From: Calliopum simillimum
Lineage: Eukaryota > Arthropoda > Insecta > Diptera > Lauxaniidae
Length of the DNA: 64,000 nucleotides
Assembly: GCA_951812925.1 (NCBI GenBank)
Contig: OX638368.1
Span: forward strand, 79,838,909-79,902,908
Reading direction: 5' to 3'
In this document: positions 2,277 through 13,884 of the stretch, in pieces
How positions within the stretch are numbered: position 1 is the stretch's first letter
Layout: every line of letters begins with the position of its first letter
The notes under the pieces: model-generated
Databases searched by the model: none
What the model was told of the DNA's origin: nothing
The model's input: the letters and a program-made list of their open reading frames with translations, nothing else
Program-made: the position numbers and the translations under genes

Positions 2277-3403
2277 TGCTCTGTGTAGGAAGTTAAATGA
2301 CAAATTGGTCAACGATAAATTCCCTTTAACTAGATTAGAAGACGTACTGGACATGTTAGGCAGAGCCAAATACTTTTCAACTTTAGACATGACAAGCTCT
2401 TTTCACCAGATACCTTTAGACGAAGAATCGAGGTGTACCTTTTGGCTTAAAAATTTCGTCAAACAGTTTTCAACGCATGTTAACTATTGCATTAAGTGGT
2501 TTAAATTTTGAGGCATTTTTATATGTCGACGACATAATCGTTTTTGGATGTTCACTAAGACATCACAACCAAAATCTCATCAAAGTTTTCGATCGTTTAC
2601 AGTATTACAATTTAAAGCTTAATGCAAGCAAATGCCATTTCCTAAAAACAGAAGTAGTATACCTTGGACATTTAATTACCGATAAAGGCATAAAAACTGA
2701 TCCTTCAAAGTACGTAAGAAGATTTGTTGCGTTTTGTAACTACTATAGCCGCTTCATACCGGAATTTGCCAATATTGCAAAATGTTTGAATCCCTTACTA
2801 AAGAAAGGAATACCTTTCATCTGGTCAGATGAATGCGACAAAGCGTTCAACGTTTTAAAACAAAAATTAATCAATCCACCAGTATTGCAATACCCAAATT
2901 TCGAAATTTCATACTTACAACTGATGCATCTGATTTTGCACTAGGAGCAGTACTTTCACAAGGAGAAATCGGACATGATTTACCAATCTCATAAATCACT
3001 AGAAAAAAATGACATCAACAAACCTATAATTGAAAAAGAACTTTTGGCAATCCACTGGGGAATAAACTTTTTCAAACCCTACTTATTCGGTAGAAAATTT
3101 ATAGTTGTAACTGACCATCGACCATTAGTATCGTTATTTTCGCATAAAAATCCTTCGTCAAAGATGACAAGGATAAGGCTCGACCTGTCTGATTACGACT
3201 TCGAAATTATTTACAAGCAAGGTAAAATTAACATAAACGCGGATGCGTTATCGCGAATAAAAATTGACAGCGATATTTTAAAATCCATGGTTCCCACAAG
3301 TGAACAACATGAACAAGAAACAAAAGCTAATTCAAGTAAGCAAAATGTACATAATGTACAAGCTATTACACGGAGCAAAATTGAGGCAAACAAGGAAACG
3401 AAT
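2277..3403 (+). pseudogene. Gypsy reverse transcriptase and RNase H remnant
   Basis: RT motifs are clear. The fingers/palm segment RLEDVLDMLGRAKYFSTLDM comes at about 2332-2391. After a frameshift and a deletion of the intervening palm segment, the catalytic YVDD box follows (about 2521-2535), then YLGHLITDKGIKTDPSK. Around 2915 another frameshift separates the connection domain (TTDASDFALGAVLSQG) from the RNase H frame. That frame has KELLAIHWGINFFKPYLFG, VTDHRPL and NADALSRI (ends about 3255). The reading frame is broken at least three times, so no enzyme can be made. The motif set is typical of Ty3/gypsy polyproteins of flies. Confidence 0.9.
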
Positions 3404-3776
3404 GCAAAAACCAGTGTTGCCAACCTAGTGCTTTTCGCACTAGATCTAGTGCTTTTTTGGGATTATTACCCGTAAAATTTTTGGCCTAGTGCTTTTTCAT
3501 TTTTAGTTTTATTTAAAAAAGAAAGATTGGTGGTCCTTATTTCCCTCCCTTACCCTAATAATTATTTATTGAAAAGTCTTTTTATAAAATTGATTCATAA
3601 TTAAAATGTTTTAATTAAAAATTACTAAACTTGTCTGTACACGTACGAAACTTTTTCGTTTTTTTTAAATTTTTTTTTGCAAATTAGAATTTAGTGCTTT
3701 TTTTTGGGAAAAAACGCGTTTTTTTGCCGGATTTGGTGCGTTTTCAAATTTAAAAGTTGGCAACACTGGCAAAAAC
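3404..3776. mobile_element. hAT-type MITE (3412-3768) with 8-bp target duplication
   Basis: The element is 357 bp long, with perfect 13-bp terminal inverted repeats CAGTGTTGCCAAC. It is flanked on both sides by GCAAAAAC (3404-3411 and 3769-3776). An 8-bp duplication with CAG-starting termini is the hAT signature. There is no coding capacity. It interrupts the gypsy frame between the RNase H tail and the integrase N-terminus, so it is younger than that element. Confidence 0.9.
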
Positions 3777-5235: not shown

Positions 5236-5703
5236 TTCTTTCGCGGATGATAATGAATGGGACAAATGGATTCCATACTATACATTTGCATACAACACAA
5301 CACCGCATGTTGACTCTTATTAATCTCCATATGAATTAATTTTCGGTAAATTCGGTAAATTCTTCCAAATGAAGTGACAAATTATAGCAATAAAGTTTAC
5401 GATATAGATAATTATGCTAGTGAATTAAAAATAAGATTAAAAACATCTATTAACAAAGCAAAAGAATTTATCAAAACAGTAAAACATAAAAGAAAAACAG
5501 AATATGATAAAAATGTCAGCATATCTGATTTACAAGTAGGAGACCTTGTTTTAGTTAAATTAGAGAGTAGAAAGAAAACTCAAAGCCCGTATCACGGACC
5601 TTACAAAATAATTAAAAGAGAAGGAGTAAACTCCATAATAAATATAAAAAATAAGAATAAGGAATTCCATAATAATATGTTAAAAAAGTTTTTAAGCAAA
5701 TAA
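5236..5703 (+). pseudogene. Gypsy integrase C-terminal part
   Basis: The host gypsy frame resumes after the LINE with a segment reading ADDNEWDKWIPYYTFAYNTT, the end of the integrase core. A short frameshifted stretch follows, then an open frame (5374-5703). That frame carries the C-terminal motif DLQVGDLVLVKLESRKK...SPYHGPYKI, which is the DNA-binding/GPY module of gypsy integrases. It ends in TAA at 5701-5703. No env frame follows. Confidence 0.85.
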
Positions 5704-6040
5704 AAATTAATTATACTATATACATTTATAAAAACAAAAATTAAATTTAATTTCAAAATAATTTTTTTTATTACATTTAAACTTAAATTGTATAATTGTA
5801 TTTCAACATAATTTTTAAAATCTTTTTAAGAATTTCAAAACATAGTCATGATGTTTAAAAATAAGAATAATTTTAAAAAATTGCATTCCTGCAAAACTTT
5901 TTTTTTAAAAAATTGAAACAAAAATTGATAAAATTTTAAGTTAAATATTTTTTTTTTTTAAAAAACAAAAAAAAAAATAAATATATTATGAGCTAATCAA
6001 TTTAATTTTATAAAAAATTAAATATATGGAAATTAATTTT
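5704..6040. other. Extremely AT-rich spacer
   Basis: The stretch holds runs of A and T with no frame. It may be the decayed 3' end of the gypsy element, but no polypurine tract or LTR start could be identified. Confidence 0.4.
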
Positions 6041-6143
6041 ATTTAATTGAACTTTTAGTCATATATTTGCCAAGATCGATTTACATATAAATCTATCAAT
6101 GCATTTTTCTAACACATAATTATGACAAATCAAGGAACGGATT
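6041..6143 (-). repeat. Inverted partial unit capping the ribozyme array
   Basis: These 103 nt are the exact reverse complement of 6590-6692, the segment just downstream of the ribozyme cleavage site in each unit. They join directly to the direct-repeat array. A partial inverted copy next to tandem units is a common arrangement of Penelope-like elements; here it could equally be a replication or repair product. Confidence 0.85.
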
Positions 6144-6374
6144 AAATAAAATCAATTTTCAATATAAAATGTCATTAAGTAACACACTTAAAAAATTCTT
6201 AAAGTTATTTGGGAGAACACGCCCTGATAAGGTGGAAACACCTGCAATCGGTATTGAATTTGTTCCAAAGGAACAACTATACCAAATATCAATAAATAAC
6301 ACAAAACAACAATTATGATATATCAATACGTATTAACACACAAATAAAACTGGCAAAAAGTCGGCTTCGCAGCC

Positions 6375-6448
6375 GGGCAAGGCTGGTGCAGTGGTAACGA
6401 CTTCTGCTACCAACCTGGAGATCCTTGGTTCGTCTCCCGCCCAGACCA
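6375..6448 (+). promoter_or_regulatory. tRNA-like Pol III promoter region, unit 1
   Basis: The region contains an A box (TGGTGCAGTGG, 6384-6394) and a B box (GGTTCGTCTCC, 6427-6437, one mismatch from the consensus). Spacing is that of a tRNA gene, and the sequence ends in AGACCA. The cloverleaf is too degenerate for a functional tRNA. Its likely role is internal Pol III transcription of the repeat, as in tRNA-derived SINEs. Confidence 0.75.
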
Positions 6449-6530
6449 AAAACACAAAAAGTTTTCAAACTTGCAATTTTTCAATTATAATTAATTTAGT
6501 AAAATAAATATAATTATAATTACAACAAAA

Positions 6531-6577
6531 ATAGTCTGATGAGTCTTTGTGGCGAAAAACGAAACATATGTCACTAT
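6531..6577 (+). ncRNA. Hammerhead ribozyme motif, copy 1 (stem II mutated)
   Basis: The order is stem I strand ATAGT, core CTGATGA, stem II, GAA, short stem III ACA-TA-TGT, cleavage base C (6572), and stem I partner ACTAT. The catalytic core is intact. In this copy the 3' side of stem II is AAAAAC instead of AAAGAC, giving one mismatch with GTCTTT, so activity is probably reduced. Predicted cleavage is between 6572 and 6573. Confidence 0.75.
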
Positions 6578-6919
6578 AGCCGTGTTTTTAATCCGTTCCT
6601 TGATTTGTCATAATTATGTGTTAGAAAAATGCATTGATAGATTTATATGTAAATCGATCTTGGCAAATATATGACTAAAAGTTCAATTAAATAAAATCAA
6701 TTTTCAATATAAAATGTCATTAAGTAACACACTTAAAAAATTCTTAAAGTTATTTGGGAGAACACGCCCTGATAAGGTGGAAACACCTGCAATCGGTATT
6801 GAATTTGTTCCAAAGGAACAACTATACCAAATATCAATAAATAACACAAAACAACAATTATGATATATCAATACGTATTAACACACAAAAAAAACTGGCA
6901 AAAAGTCGGCTTCGCAGCC

Positions 6920-6993
6920 GGGCAAGGCTGGTGCAGTGGTAACGACTTCTGCTACCAACCTGGAGATCCTTGGTTCGTCTCCCGCCCAGACCA
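6920..6993 (+). promoter_or_regulatory. tRNA-like Pol III promoter region, unit 2
   Basis: This is the same A box and B box as in unit 1, displaced by exactly 545 bp. Identity with the other copies is complete or nearly so over the motif, indicating recent amplification of the unit. Confidence 0.75.
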
Positions 6994-7075
6994 AAAACAC
7001 AAAAAGTTTTCAAACTTGCAATTTTTCAATTATAATTAATTTAGTAAAATAAATATAATTATAATTACAACAAAA

Positions 7076-7122
7076 ATAGTCTGATGAGTCTTTGTGGCGA
7101 AAGACGAAACATATGTCACTAT
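7076..7122 (+). ncRNA. Hammerhead ribozyme motif, copy 2 (intact)
   Basis: All elements of a type I hammerhead are present. Stem I is ATAGT/ACTAT. The core is CTGATGA. Stem II pairs GTCTTT with AAAGAC around the loop GTGGCG. GAA precedes the palindrome ACATATGT, which serves as stem III, and the cleavage triplet is GTC (7115-7117). Because ACATATGT is self-complementary, two neighbouring ribozymes in one transcript could form a dimeric hammerhead with a longer stem III. Cleavage at successive copies would release 545-nt RNAs. Confidence 0.88.
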
Positions 7123-7464
7123 AGCCGTGTTTTTAATCCGTTCCTTGATTTGTCATAATTATGTGTTAGAAAAATGCATTGATAGATTTATATGTAAATC
7201 GATCTTGGCAAATATATGACTAAAAGTTCAATTAAATAAAATCAATTTTCAATATAAAATGTCATTAAGTAACACACTTAAAAAATTCTTAAAGTTATTT
7301 GGGAGAACACGCCCTGATAAGGTGGAAACACCTGCAATCGGTATTGAATTTGTTCCAAAGGAACAACTATACCAAATATCAATAAATAACACAAAACAAC
7401 AATTATGATATATCAATACGTATTAACACACAAATAAAACTGGCAAAAAGTCGGCTTCGCAGCC

Positions 7465-7538
7465 GGGCAAGGCTGGTGCAGTGGTAACGACTTCTGCTAC
7501 CAACCTGGAGATCCTTGGTTCGTCTCCCGCCCAGACCA
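7465..7538 (+). promoter_or_regulatory. tRNA-like Pol III promoter region, unit 3
   Basis: This is the third copy of the A-box/B-box region, again displaced by 545 bp, followed by the AT-rich body and ribozyme copy 3. Confidence 0.75.
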
Positions 7539-7620
7539 AAAACACAAAATGTTTTCAAACTTGCAATTTTTCAATTATAATTAATTTAGTAAAATAAATA
7601 TAATTATAATTACAACAAAA

Positions 7621-7667
7621 ATAGTCTGATGAGTCTTTGTGGCGAAAGACGAAACATATGTCACTAT
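7621..7667 (+). ncRNA. Hammerhead ribozyme motif, copy 3 (intact)
   Basis: Sequence and pairing are identical to copy 2: ATAGT/ACTAT, CTGATGA, GTCTTT/AAAGAC, GAA, ACATATGT, C. Predicted cleavage lies between 7662 and 7663. About 175 bp of the following partial unit remain before the array ends. Confidence 0.88.
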
Positions 7668-7839
7668 AGCCGTGTTTTTAATCCGTTCCTTGATTTGTCA
7701 TAATTATGTGTTAGAAAAATGCATTGATAGATTTATATGTAAATCGATCTTGGCAAATATATGACTAAAAGTTCAATTAAATAAAATCAATTTTCAATAT
7801 AAAATGTCATTAAGTAACACACTTAAAAAATTCTTATAT

Positions 7840-8611
7840 GTAAATTAGTTTATAAAATTCCCAACAAAATTTTATTACCACCTGTACAAAAACTCCATCA
7901 TCTTAAAAATTTATCTTTCGAAGGTAAATTTTCGCTTAAGGGTTAGGGTGTAGTGTACTCATAAAGTCACTATTGCCACAAACGACACTTCTCTAAAACT
8001 CAGACTAAAATAATTTTTCTTCAATTTATTTTCCCACCAAATTTAAAGTTAACAAATTAAATTCAGAAATACTAAAACCACTTTGGAGTAAACAAAATTC
8101 CAAAGTACTCAAATTCCAAATAAATAAATTTTCTTTAATTTATTTTCAACCCCTTTTGGCTTGTACTGTTTATGTATCCAACACATGAGCACGAGCACAA
8201 CAACACATTTAAAGTCATGGTCAATATTTTCAATGCACTTGTTGTTATTGGGGAATTAGATTTCAGTTTGGGAAACTAAATTGTGTTGATCGACCAAAAC
8301 AAAACTGATTGGCGATCAAGGGAAAATCCAAAGAGAGAAGGGTGGAGTTAAAGAAAATAGTGGGAAATAATTTTAAGTAAAATAATGTTTTTTTTTATTG
8401 TTTATATACTCGTACATCATTCTTAATAAAGTAATCTTAAGTCTAAGCACAAGAGTGGCGCATAGCCAGAGTTTTTAATTTCGATTCAGATGAAAAGTGC
8501 GGCGTAAAGCCAGAACAAACTGCTGCGTCTAGCAGACATAAATATAAGACAACCTTTTTTTTTATTTATCTTCTTTACTCGCATCCTACGCTTAACGCGT
8601 AACTTTACACT
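7840..8611. other. Non-coding AT-rich sequence
   Basis: No gene, RNA or clear repeat boundary was recognised. Some mixed-composition stretches (for example 8455-8550) might be old repeat sequence, but I cannot assign them. Confidence 0.4.
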
Positions 8612-12388: not shown

Positions 12389-13139
12389 TATATATGTATA
12401 TATATATATAAATATAAATACATACATATATACTAAATTTACTACTATTTTAGTACTAAACTACTAAAAACGCTATAGTACCTGGTGGAGCACTGAAGCC
12501 TTTTTCCTTGCTCATTTGAATTAAAATCGGACTGTATTCTATTTTTGTTATTTATTTTAATTTTATTATTTTTAAAACTAATGCCGGCTAAACTAAAACT
12601 ATTAAATCTATTCAAACTAAATCATTCAATATAAAAGATAGAAGAAACAATGATTTTACGACGATGATGAAATTGATGTTGTGTTTACGATGAGTTGCGC
12701 GAGCCAAGTGTCCAAAACTGATTTTTGCTAATTGCTTTCTACTTGCATTAGAATTTGCAAGCGAAGGTCACGTCGTAAAACTAGTTTTTTATAAGACGAA
12801 AATAAGCGGTTGTTGTTGGTAGTTATTGTATGTAAACAAACGGCGAAGACAAAACCTTTGTTGTTGATGCGGTGGCGAAGACGACGAATGTGGGGTAGTG
12901 TAAATGTGCAGCTGCCGAAAATAACGAAAACAAAGAAGTGGTGTGACATTTGATGACGTTCGATGAGCGGTACCGTCGATGAGATGAAATGTGTATGCGA
13001 CAAGTGTGTACTGATGTACATATGTAAATACCCAACAGAAAATTTCGATGCGCATCCCCGAGATGCAATAGCGATGCGCGTCCTTCTCGCATCCAAAGAG
13101 CTGATTTGTATGCGCATATTTTCTGCGCTATAGGTAGCG
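12389..13139. other. TA-rich flank and probable U5 side of a BEL/Pao LTR
   Basis: Starts with TA repeats. It then carries a phrase (TACTAAATTTACTACTATTT, about 12431) that recurs at about 46946. The stretch from roughly 12650 to 13139 is more GC-rich and probably belongs to the LTR that begins at 13884 on the minus strand, but the inner LTR end could not be fixed. Confidence 0.4.
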
Positions 13140-13720
13140 AGAGCAAAGCGCATCCAAAGAGCATTACTGAATGCGAGAGCGATGAGCATCCAAAGAGAAT
13201 TTCTGGTAGCGAGAGTGATGCGCATCCAAAGAGCATTTCTGGATGCGAGAGCGATGCGCATCCAAAGAGCATTTTTGGTAGCGAGAACGATGCGCTTTCG
13301 GTCACGTATTAACGTACAAAACAAAATAAATCAATAAGTCGTCTTCGTAAGAGCGCGATGATAGAGCAGTGGTCTAGCGACTGGCACTGCGATTGAGAGT
13401 TGTAGCAACCGTGAGGTCCTCGGTTCAACTCCGGCCCAGACCTAACACAAAAGTTTGCAACTTGCAATTTTTCAATTAGAATTAATTTAGTAAAATAAAA
13501 ATAATTATAATTACATAAAAAAAATAATAGTCTGATGTGTTTTTGTTGACGAAAGACGTAAAATTTCAGTTAAAAATGAATTTTTTAAATATTTTTATTG
13601 TCATCCAAAAAGCATCCAAAGAGCATTTCTGGTAGCGAGAGCGATGCGCATCCAAACAGCATTTCTGGATGCGAGAGCGATGCGCATCCAAAGAGCATTT
13701 CTGGTAGCGAGAGCGAAGCG
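13140..13720. repeat. 36-bp minisatellite, two blocks split by a SINE
   Basis: The unit GCATCCAAAGAGCATTTCTG + GTAGCGAGAGCGATGC repeats at 13149, 13186, 13222 and 13258, and again at 13612, 13648 and 13684. The gap between blocks is the SINE at 13336-13575. Because 36 is divisible by three, the array keeps long frames open on both strands (for example repeated EMLFGCASLS on the minus strand); I read these as array artefacts. Confidence 0.85.
13336..13575 (+). mobile_element. tRNA-derived SINE, diverged relative of the 545-bp ribozyme unit
   Basis: An A box (TAGAGCAGTGG, 13362-13372) and a perfect B box (GGTTCAACTCC, 13422-13432) are followed by GGCCCAGACC. The body AACTTGCAATTTTTCAATTA is shared with the 545-bp array. 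At 13531 the hammerhead site reads CTGATGTG, with GAAAGACGTAAA downstream. The conserved A of CTGATGA and the GAAA box are therefore lost and the ribozyme is dead. The 545-bp unit and this SINE clearly share both head and body. Confidence 0.75.
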
Positions 13721-13884
13721 CTTCGTTCCAATGACATGCCAATGTTAATTTCAGCGCTTTTGGCAACGAGAGAGATGCGCTTCACTGCTGCTTTAGAGCG
13801 CTTCAGAAGCGCTATTGATGCGCTCCATTCCCCATTGGGTATGTTTTCAAAAAATATGTTGTAAATTTGGTAGGGTTACCAACA

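What the first reader, a model, noticed from the sequence alone, without database searches (positions are those of the whole stretch)
6041..7839. Tandem 545-bp repeat uniting a Pol III promoter and a hammerhead ribozyme
Each unit has A and B boxes and, about 100 bp downstream, a complete type I hammerhead: CTGATGA, stem II GTCTTT/AAAGAC, GAA, stem III ACATATGT, GTC cleavage site, stem I ATAGT/ACTAT. The exact 545-bp spacing predicts self-cleavage into unit-length RNAs that could circularise, as in retrozymes. I know hammerheads in Schistosoma satellite DNA, cave-cricket satellites, Penelope-like terminal repeats and animal retrozymes. A dipteran tRNA-headed unit of this kind is not one I recognise. 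This is the best candidate for an undescribed system in the window.
Basis: partly seen in the sequence, partly recalled or inferred. Interest (0 to 1): 0.92.

Follow-up and report, generated by a model that had tools for sequence, protein, structure and literature searches.

The report
Hammerhead retrozyme carrying Penelope-type insertion ends
An animal genome, taken to be a fly's, carries a self-cutting RNA repeat that appears to spread by being copied round and round from an RNA circle, and relatives of it form arrays at several assembled chromosome ends.

Summary
The repeat is real. Window 6036-7836 is one insertion with an imperfect 13-bp target-site duplication: a short inverted piece, then about 3.1 head-to-tail 545-bp units, each with a type I hammerhead (HHR). 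The HHR pattern has 2,978 genome hits, none in the reversed control. A diverged family B keeps the fold through 5 two-sided changes, though Rfam scores stay below gathering.

New: in 39 of 39 classified A insertions at least one outer end lies at one of two unit positions, X (~125) or Y (~175). Where both ends are such (20), it is always one X and one Y. This is the 'tail' signature tied to two internal start sites of Penelope-like (PLE) reverse transcription. PLE frames exist; the helper was not found.

The Pol III claim is weaker: A/B boxes exist, but T4-T5 runs precede the HHR.

Unexpected: relative C (385-410 bp) lies at 7 of 12 ends of the six largest contigs (six arrays, one single decayed unit), always reading tip to centre.

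Verdict: a PLE-mobilised retrozyme, a new variant of a known kind, with a bold open telomere question.

The parts
6023..6035 (.). left copy of imperfect target-site duplication (13 bp, 1 mismatch to 7835-7847)
6036..6140 (-). inverted piece; outer end at unit phase ~125 (X); joined to the + array at a few bases of overlap (6141-6146)
   Evidence: I1; L009 HSPs
6141..7836 (+). head-to-tail array from unit phase 114 to phase 174 (Y); full units 6573-7117 and 7118-7662, partial 6141-6572 and 7663-7836
6531..6577 (+). type I hammerhead, copy 1 (stem II C-A mismatch); predicted cut after 6572
   Evidence: listed only as weak type III
7076..7122 (+). type I hammerhead, copy 2; predicted cut after 7117
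   Evidence: RF00163 21.5 bits, E 0.045 (below gathering 34)
7621..7667 (+). type I hammerhead, copy 3; predicted cut after 7662
   Evidence: RF00163 21.5 bits, E 0.045 (below gathering 34)
6384..6394 (+). A-box-like TGGTGCAGTGG (also 6929-6939 and 7474-7484)
   Evidence: scored
6427..6437 (+). B-box-like GGTTCGTCTCC (also 6972-6982 and 7517-7527), start-to-start 43 from the A box
   Evidence: scored
6696..6749 (+). proposed reverse-transcription start region: X ~phase 124-127, Y ~174-177, with the AC-rich hairpin TTAAGT-AACAC-ACTTAA (phases 148-164) between; repeated at 6151-6204, 7241-7294 and 7786-7836
   Evidence: functional reading by analogy with PMC11167929
6714..6863 (+). 49-aa open frame (also 6169-6318, 7259-7408); not open in family B, shifted or shortened in a minority of A units; probably not a gene
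7835..7847 (.). right copy of the target-site duplication

Best explanation
The element is a non-autonomous hammerhead retrozyme moved by the machinery of a Penelope-like element. A transcript through a genomic array self-cleaves at each HHR into 545-nt units (inferred; the 3-bp, 2-nt-loop palindromic stem III suggests cleavage mainly as a dimer, perhaps helped by protein). Units are closed into circles by a host ligase (inferred from published retrozymes). A PLE protein carries the RNA to AT-rich DNA, both strands are cut, and each cut 3' end primes reverse transcription at one of two fixed places on the RNA, X or Y. Going round the circle more than once gives a head-to-tail array with a fixed 3' end and an arbitrary 5' end. 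The two cDNAs, one started at X and one at Y, meet head to head, which leaves the inverted left piece and a duplication of about 11-17 bp. Shown: anatomy, ends, duplications at many loci, HHR kept across families. Inferred: cleavage, circles, PLE as the enzyme.
For: Ends: of 40 fetched loci (41 cluster rows), 39 were classified (L020, interrupted by another insertion, dropped): 20 X+Y, 0 X+X, 0 Y+Y, 14 with one X or Y end and a 5'-truncated other end, 5 with one X or Y end and another 3' position. If X and Y were used independently and equally, all-discordant would have p about 2e-6 (19 independent, since L018 and L047 share flanks; own arithmetic). Exact repeats of 11-17 bp near both ends in 23 of 41 rows, of which L040, L043 and L044 sit away from the ends; 6 rows gave only 7-9 bp and 12 none; no shuffle control. 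Family B, only loosely alike, shows one end at 121-129 and the other at 150-153 in 3 of 3 loci. PMC11167929 (parts 1-2 of 4 read): PLE reverse transcription starts at two adjacent sites, mostly in an AC-rich stem loop; the interval corresponds to the 30-40-bp genomic 'tail'; both strands are cut, with preference for AT-rich DNA. PMC3846280 passages: tail optional on one of the inverted pLTRs, TSDs of 8-10 bp where present. One template per array: units in one array differ by 2.40 positions on average against 6.09 between arrays, 0 of 2000 permutations as low (95 full units, 37 loci). PLE frames with RVT_1 and GIY-YIG of 830 and 662 aa in the same genome. HHR kept by 5 two-sided changes.
Against: No PLE sharing sequence with A, B or C was found: the two fetched PLEs show only short matches (best E 7e-4, 25 nt), and Rfam finds no HHR in them. 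X-Y spacing is about 50 nt in A and about 20-30 in B, not 30-40. The X and Y windows were set after seeing the data, and the 39 loci are the best matches to the window's unit, so older copies were not examined. L018 and L047 have matching flanks at 99.5% but different array lengths, so array length also changes by recombination, and likeness within arrays need not mean a circle; L011 mixes 545- and 546-nt units, and in L020 and L035 units differ among themselves more than from other arrays. In vitro, the anole PLE used mainly uncleaved RNA, did not need its HHR, and the HHR did not cut without protein. Rfam scores stay below gathering. No RNA data could be examined.
Confidence: 0.8

Rival explanations
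1. Same PLE route, but the template is a linear multimeric transcript of an existing array, not a circle; the HHR is dispensable for spread.
For: The anole PLE inserted uncleaved RNA in vitro and HHR mutants did not change insertion (PMC11167929). Many arrays exist to be transcribed. L011 mixes 545- and 546-nt units in one array.
Against: Array-specific unit lengths in others (547 x5 in L024, 548 x3 in L029, 546 x5 in L032) and lower divergence within than between arrays fit a one-unit template better; the HHR is kept across families.
Confidence: 0.3
2. An ordinary satellite that spreads by unequal exchange or extrachromosomal DNA circles; HHR and boxes are passengers.
For: L018/L047 show array-length change at one site; arrays are homogeneous.
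Against: X/Y ends, one of each, with duplications and inverted pieces in dispersed insertions; two-sided HHR changes between families.
Confidence: 0.07
3. A classical tRNA-headed SINE transcribed by Pol III and moved by a LINE, which happens to contain an HHR.
For: A/B boxes 16 of 17 (0 of 200 shuffles); Sm-alpha precedent.
Against: The printed 3' ends lie inside the unit at X or Y and share no A-tail; T-runs between B box and HHR; head boxes of family B not above chance (66 of 200).
Confidence: 0.08

Closest known systems
Metazoan non-LTR retrozymes (Cervera and de la Pena 2020, PMC7229834; parts 1-3 of 6 and passages read)
   Same: Type I HHR in tandem units from dimers to long multimers, low GC, no large ORF, duplications longer than 4 bp, co-existing PLEs.
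   Different: Unit 545 nt against ~170-400 nt; internal A/B boxes, whereas the 2020 review says retrozymes seem to lack promoters; PLE-type ends, whereas the review says the repeats show no conserved motif from which to deduce the helper (PMC7761336 section 9).
Penelope-like elements with pLTR-borne minimal HHRs (PMC11167929 parts 1-2, PMC3846280 passages)
   Same: Two start sites with a tail between, inverted partial copies at the left, tandem structure, AT-rich targets, minimal type I HHR upstream of the start sites.
   Different: No RT/GIY-YIG gene in the unit; tail about 50 nt in A; a tRNA-like head.
Schistosome Sm-alpha / Sj-alpha SINE-like elements (PMC2770079, PMC8490949 passages)
   Same: tRNA-like, HHR-bearing (type I in Sm-alpha), very high copy number.
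   Different: Different phylum; no sequence comparison was made here; no PLE-tail ends mentioned in the passages read.
[quoted passage not shown] midges and Anopheles gambiae (PMC12051294, PMC7534423 passages)
   Same: Family C: hundreds-of-bp tandem repeats at assembled chromosome ends.
   Different: C carries a hammerhead and a tRNA-like head; the term 'ribozyme' does not occur in the main text of those two papers.

Membership tests
Metazoan non-LTR retrozyme | type I HHR in each tandem unit | tested here: met
   but below Rfam gathering, and copy 1 has one broken pair
Metazoan non-LTR retrozyme | tandem units, dimers to multimers, low GC | tested here: met
   (up to 10 full units in L016); GC 0.32
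Metazoan non-LTR retrozyme | unit / RNA size ~170-400 nt | tested here: not met
   545 (A) and 532 (B) nt; size is descriptive rather than defining
Metazoan non-LTR retrozyme | target-site duplications longer than 4 bp | tested here: met
   window; 23 of 41 rows with 11 bp or more
Metazoan non-LTR retrozyme | no protein-coding region | tested here: met
   only a 49-aa frame, not open in B, shifted or shortened in a minority of A units
Metazoan non-LTR retrozyme | loop 1-loop 2 tertiary interaction of the canonical HHR | not tested
   -
[quoted passage not shown]
   no RNA data
Penelope-like element | ORF with RT and GIY-YIG endonuclease | tested here: not met
   no frame of 120 aa or more in 6036-7836
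Moved by Penelope-like machinery (works like) | insertion ends at two adjacent start sites ('tail') | tested here: met
   A: 39 of 39 classified with at least one, 20 of 20 double-ended X+Y; B: 3 of 3
Moved by Penelope-like machinery (works like) | a PLE of the same genome sharing the start region | tested here: inconclusive
   two of the many GIY-YIG loci fetched, no similarity
tRNA-derived SINE | internal Pol III promoter driving the whole unit | tested here: inconclusive
   boxes present but T4-T5 runs before the HHR
Telomeric LCTTR (family C only) | repeat at chromosome ends and not elsewhere | tested here: inconclusive
   7 of 12 contig ends (C6 only one unit); the 100 hits listed of 232 are all within 25 kb of an end, as are 25 of 25 and 56 of 56 hits of C5-specific patterns; about 23 hits not located
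Telomeric LCTTR (family C only) | physically terminal (FISH, Bal31, read ends) | not testable with these tools
   only an assembly

The most novel reading that the evidence does not exclude
In this animal the hammerhead repeat has become the telomere: chromosome 3' ends prime reverse transcription of unit-length C RNA circles cut out by their own HHR, laying down identical head-to-tail units that read inward from the tip, so a ribozyme circle does the job of the telomerase RNA and a PLE- or LINE-type reverse transcriptase the job of telomerase. Fits: C at 7 of 12 assembled ends (six arrays, one single unit), tip-to-centre orientation in 7 of 7, 19 of 19 consecutive units identical at the C3 start, end-specific variants (0-1.5% within an end, 1.8-7.1% between, five ends compared), HHR core kept in the six arrays. 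Against: C lacks the X/Y start region, five ends lack C, the C6 unit is decayed, C1 has C interleaved with other sequence, and recombination alone could keep such arrays alike.
Probability: 0.2. Interest if true: 0.95.

Novelty: new variant of a known kind. Interest (0 to 1): 0.76.

Why it matters
The 2020 review of retrozymes states that the animal repeats show no conserved motif from which the helper element can be deduced and that retrozymes seem to lack promoters (PMC7761336 section 9). Here the classified insertions of one large HHR family (39 loci, and 3 of a second family) carry a fixed pair of end positions that match the two-site start of Penelope-like reverse transcription. That makes the long-suspected PLE-retrozyme link directly testable. 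The one-X-one-Y rule, if it holds in a full survey, is also a constraint on how PLE proteins work. And if the ribozyme repeat at chromosome ends is real telomere, it offers a concrete RNA-based answer to how an insect without telomerase could keep complex terminal repeats.

Tried and rejected
Rejected: tRNA gene (ARAGORN none). A viral, phage or plasmid origin: no match in viral contigs (two exact patterns), phages or plasmids. The 49-aa frame as a gene: not open in family B, of 95 A units 4 lack the start sequence searched for, most of the rest keep a 49-aa frame, and a minority are shortened, extended or frameshifted, which is what a young non-coding family would also show. The Rfam hit 'archaeal sRNA162' (E 2.8-3.7) as chance. 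RNA folding energies do not distinguish the HHR from shuffles (z -0.25 to -0.58). A PLE helper by DNA similarity: none in the two fetched PLEs. Telomerase: PF12009 no match in own genome, but none in the control genomes either, so it says nothing. Not answered: search for TTAGG arrays and for the unlocated C hits.

What stayed open: which PLE family is the helper; the species and even its order; RNA evidence; how many of the older copies keep the X/Y ends.
Full report
What is in the window. The element lies at 6036-7836 of a window that is G000:C1:79838909-79902908, from a 690-Mb genome in 334 contigs. Units repeat at exactly 545 bp. Each unit carries the catalytic core of a type I hammerhead; predicted cuts are after 6572, 7117 and 7662. 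Copies 2 and 3 are complete, copy 1 has one broken stem II pair. Rfam gives no hit at gathering scores and E 0.045 for copies 2 and 3 in a permissive scan. The left end is an inverted piece and the whole is flanked by an imperfect duplication, 13 bp with one mismatch, or 17 bp with two. It sits next to Ty3/gypsy-like coding fragments (own reading of the frames at 2420-3475 and of the sequence before 5704).

The family. The pattern CTGATGA-N-CGAAACATATGTC, which catches families A, B and C together, has 2,978 matches in the genome and none in the reversed control. The unit search scored the 40 best of 1,577 candidate places and gave 202 matches. I fetched those 40 places with flanks. In 95 full units from 37 loci the mean distance to the majority sequence is 3.1 positions of 545. 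These are the closest copies to the window's unit, so both the apparent youth and the tidy ends describe the youngest part of the family.

Three relatives share the ribozyme. A (545 nt) is the window's. B (532 nt, L061-L063) is so diverged that only blocks align, but the order is the same: cut site, start region, GGAGAACACGCC block, tRNA-like head, hammerhead. Its stem II is GGTTAC/GTAACC against GTCTTT/AAAGAC. Across A, B and C, 5 of 14 pairs change on both sides, 97.6% of cells stay paired, and sliding the partner by 1-3 columns drops this to 29-49%. These are three representatives that I chose, and all five changes separate B from A and C, so the shuffle numbers (4 of 500) are only a guide. 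Within A I saw no two-sided change (12 distinct sequences over all families, intact core and stem III demanded). Rfam lists no hammerhead in the B locus L061 even at E 10. C (385-410 nt) is discussed below.

The ends are the key. Mapping A units in the 40 loci gave 41 clusters; I dropped L020 (interrupted by another insertion), and for L025 used the outer end 131 because the leftmost hit was a short chance match. All 39 others have at least one outer end at X (phase 112-145 as mapped, ~124-127 after taking off the duplication) or Y (160-186 as mapped, ~174-177); these windows were set after seeing the data. Twenty insertions end in such a site on both sides, inverted to each other: 20 are X+Y, none X+X, none Y+Y. 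Fourteen have a single X or Y end (7 and 7) and are cut off at arbitrary phases on the other side (in one of them the other side borders a run of N, so its end is unknown). Five have one X or Y end and another 3' position (L027, L030, L035, L036, L044). B loci, 3 of 3, show one end at 121-129 and the other at 150-153, untrimmed. Between X and Y of A lies TTAAGT-AACAC-ACTTAA, an AC-rich hairpin.

This is what a Penelope-like protein does. In Frangieh et al. 2024 (PMC11167929, parts 1 and 2 of 4 read) the purified anole PLE cuts both strands, preferring AT-rich DNA, and starts reverse transcription at two adjacent internal sites, mostly in an AC-rich stem loop; the interval corresponds to the 30-40-bp 'tail' seen on some genomic copies. 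They saw no difference in start site between top and bottom strands. Rotifer PLEs carry the tail optionally on one of two inverted pLTRs, with 8-10-bp duplications where present (PMC3846280 passages). The strict one-of-each rule here goes a step beyond what I read there: it suggests that the two strands of one target use the two start sites, perhaps by the two halves of a protein dimer (inference).

Circle or multimer? Units within an array are more alike than between arrays (2.40 against 6.09 differences, 0 of 2000 permutations) and several arrays have their own unit length. That fits rolling round one circle. It is not proof: L018 and L047 have matching flanks (99.5%) but 3 against 1 full units, so arrays also change size by recombination; L011 mixes 545- and 546-nt units, and L020 and L035 hold units that differ among themselves more than from other arrays.

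Promoter. A and B boxes score 16 of 17 in A and 15 of 17 in C (0 of 200 shuffles each), but 13 of 17 in B (66 of 200, not above chance). T-runs of 4-6 lie between the B box and the HHR in all three. So the head may make a short Pol III RNA; whether it makes the ribozyme unit is open.

The helper. GIY-YIG matches number 51 (150 of 209 candidates scored); not all need be PLEs. Two loci with long frames were fetched: 830 aa, and 662 aa from a GTG, each with RVT_1 and GIY-YIG, so PLEs are present. Neither shares more than short matches with the A, B or C units (best E 7e-4 over 25 nt), and Rfam finds no HHR in them. By eye, a minimal core CTGATGA-T-GAGTTG/CAACTC-GAA lies about 146 bases after the 830-aa frame; B has the same extra T before stem II. 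The helper is therefore not identified.

Chromosome ends. Because HHRs lie at C1:369-2703, I read the first or last 1.5-3 kb of the six largest contigs. Seven of 12 ends hold C: arrays at C1 start, C3 both, C4 end, C5 both, and a single unit at C6 start. C is about 80-93% like A over the first ~100 nt, the head and the HHR, and lacks phases ~101-179 and ~214-315, that is, the X/Y region and most of the frame. In 7 of 7 the sense strand reads from tip to centre, the orientation expected if a chromosome 3' end primes copying of the RNA (Drosophila telomeric retrotransposons point towards the centromere, PMC12051294 passage). A C-specific HHR pattern has 232 hits (98 +, 134 -; reversed control 0). 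The 100 listed, which cover C1-C3 and part of C4, are all within 25 kb of an end; C5-start and C5-end variants give 25 of 25 and 56 of 56 hits terminal. By my arithmetic the minus hits are then accounted for, while about 23 plus hits were not located. Single 420-base probes: C present 20 kb from the ends of C4 and C5, absent at 60 kb; absent at 20 kb for C1 start, C3 both and C5 start. Nineteen consecutive C3-start units are identical; at the C5 end 19 units have 3 sequences. Differences are 0-1.5% within an end and 1.8-7.1% between ends for the five ends compared (C4 end dropped out because its stem III is longer, C6 has one unit). The HHR core is kept in all six arrays read, but one of 3 C4 copies has a stem I change and two of 5 C1 copies end in a different stem I flank; the C6 unit is decayed. 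C also fits a type III hammerhead through an upstream ACATATGT, 37.8 bits, E 1.5e-5, still below gathering 48.5; this second fold scores less at the C4 and C5 ends and at C6. Five of 12 ends carry other sequence, so C is not universal. Whether C is telomere or subtelomere cannot be told from an assembly; long dipteran terminal repeats are thought to be kept by recombination or gene conversion, possibly with an RNA intermediate (PMC12051294 passage).

Novelty. Retrozymes, PLE hammerheads and HHR-bearing SINE-like elements are known. In eight paper searches (open-licence PMC only; the 9-20 best listings of each seen) I saw no title or abstract start that describes PLE-type two-site ends on an animal retrozyme, or a hammerhead in an insect's terminal repeat. 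One paper mentions type III hammerheads in dipteran genomes 'in preparation' (PMC7936874 section 10), so part of this may be known to others. Lunse 2017, Cervera 2014 and Arkhipova 2017 were not held and are known to me only through citations and recall.

Changes made on checking: the telomere membership row was lowered to inconclusive, the C6 end is told as a single unit, and limits of the sample and of Rfam were added.

Noticed in passing
L049, L051, L053, L054, L057, L058, L059 (ends of C1, C3, C4, C5, C6): Related HHR repeat C lies at 7 of 12 contig ends (six arrays, one single unit), all reading tip to centre; described in the report.
   Followed up: yes
L049:338-407 and equivalents: C units can fold as type I and as type III hammerhead around one shared core (ACATATGT occurs twice); could give two cuts per unit.
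   Followed up: partly
L049:1219-1897 (C1 start): C units are interleaved with a ~670-bp different sequence in a higher-order repeat; not examined.
   Followed up: no
L052 (C4 start) and L056 (C2 end); L055 (C1 end): Ends without C: C4 start and C2 end share another repeat around ATCCAAAATATCG (read on opposite strands), C1 end has a further tandem repeat (own reading).
   Followed up: no
L036 (C5:79062959-79072841): A large near-palindromic A array, two opposite multi-unit arms with internally shortened units.
   Followed up: no
L018 and L047 (C4 46.43 and 46.45 Mb): Two copies of one insertion with matching flanks, 99.5% alike, with 3 and 1 full units: local or haplotype duplication plus array-length change.
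   Followed up: partly
window 2420-3475 and 5500-5703: Ty3/gypsy-like RT/RNase H and integrase-like coding fragments to the left of the element (own reading).
   Followed up: no
window 13133-13721: 36-bp tandem repeat blocks with unit GCGAGAGCGATGCGCATCCAAAGAGC....
   Followed up: no
G000:C104:11024-11251 and C183:63226-63453: GIY-YIG matches in 622- and 612-aa open frames on small contigs, among the best-scoring; size recalls bacterial UvrC, so possibly an endosymbiont contig (recalled, not tested).
   Followed up: no
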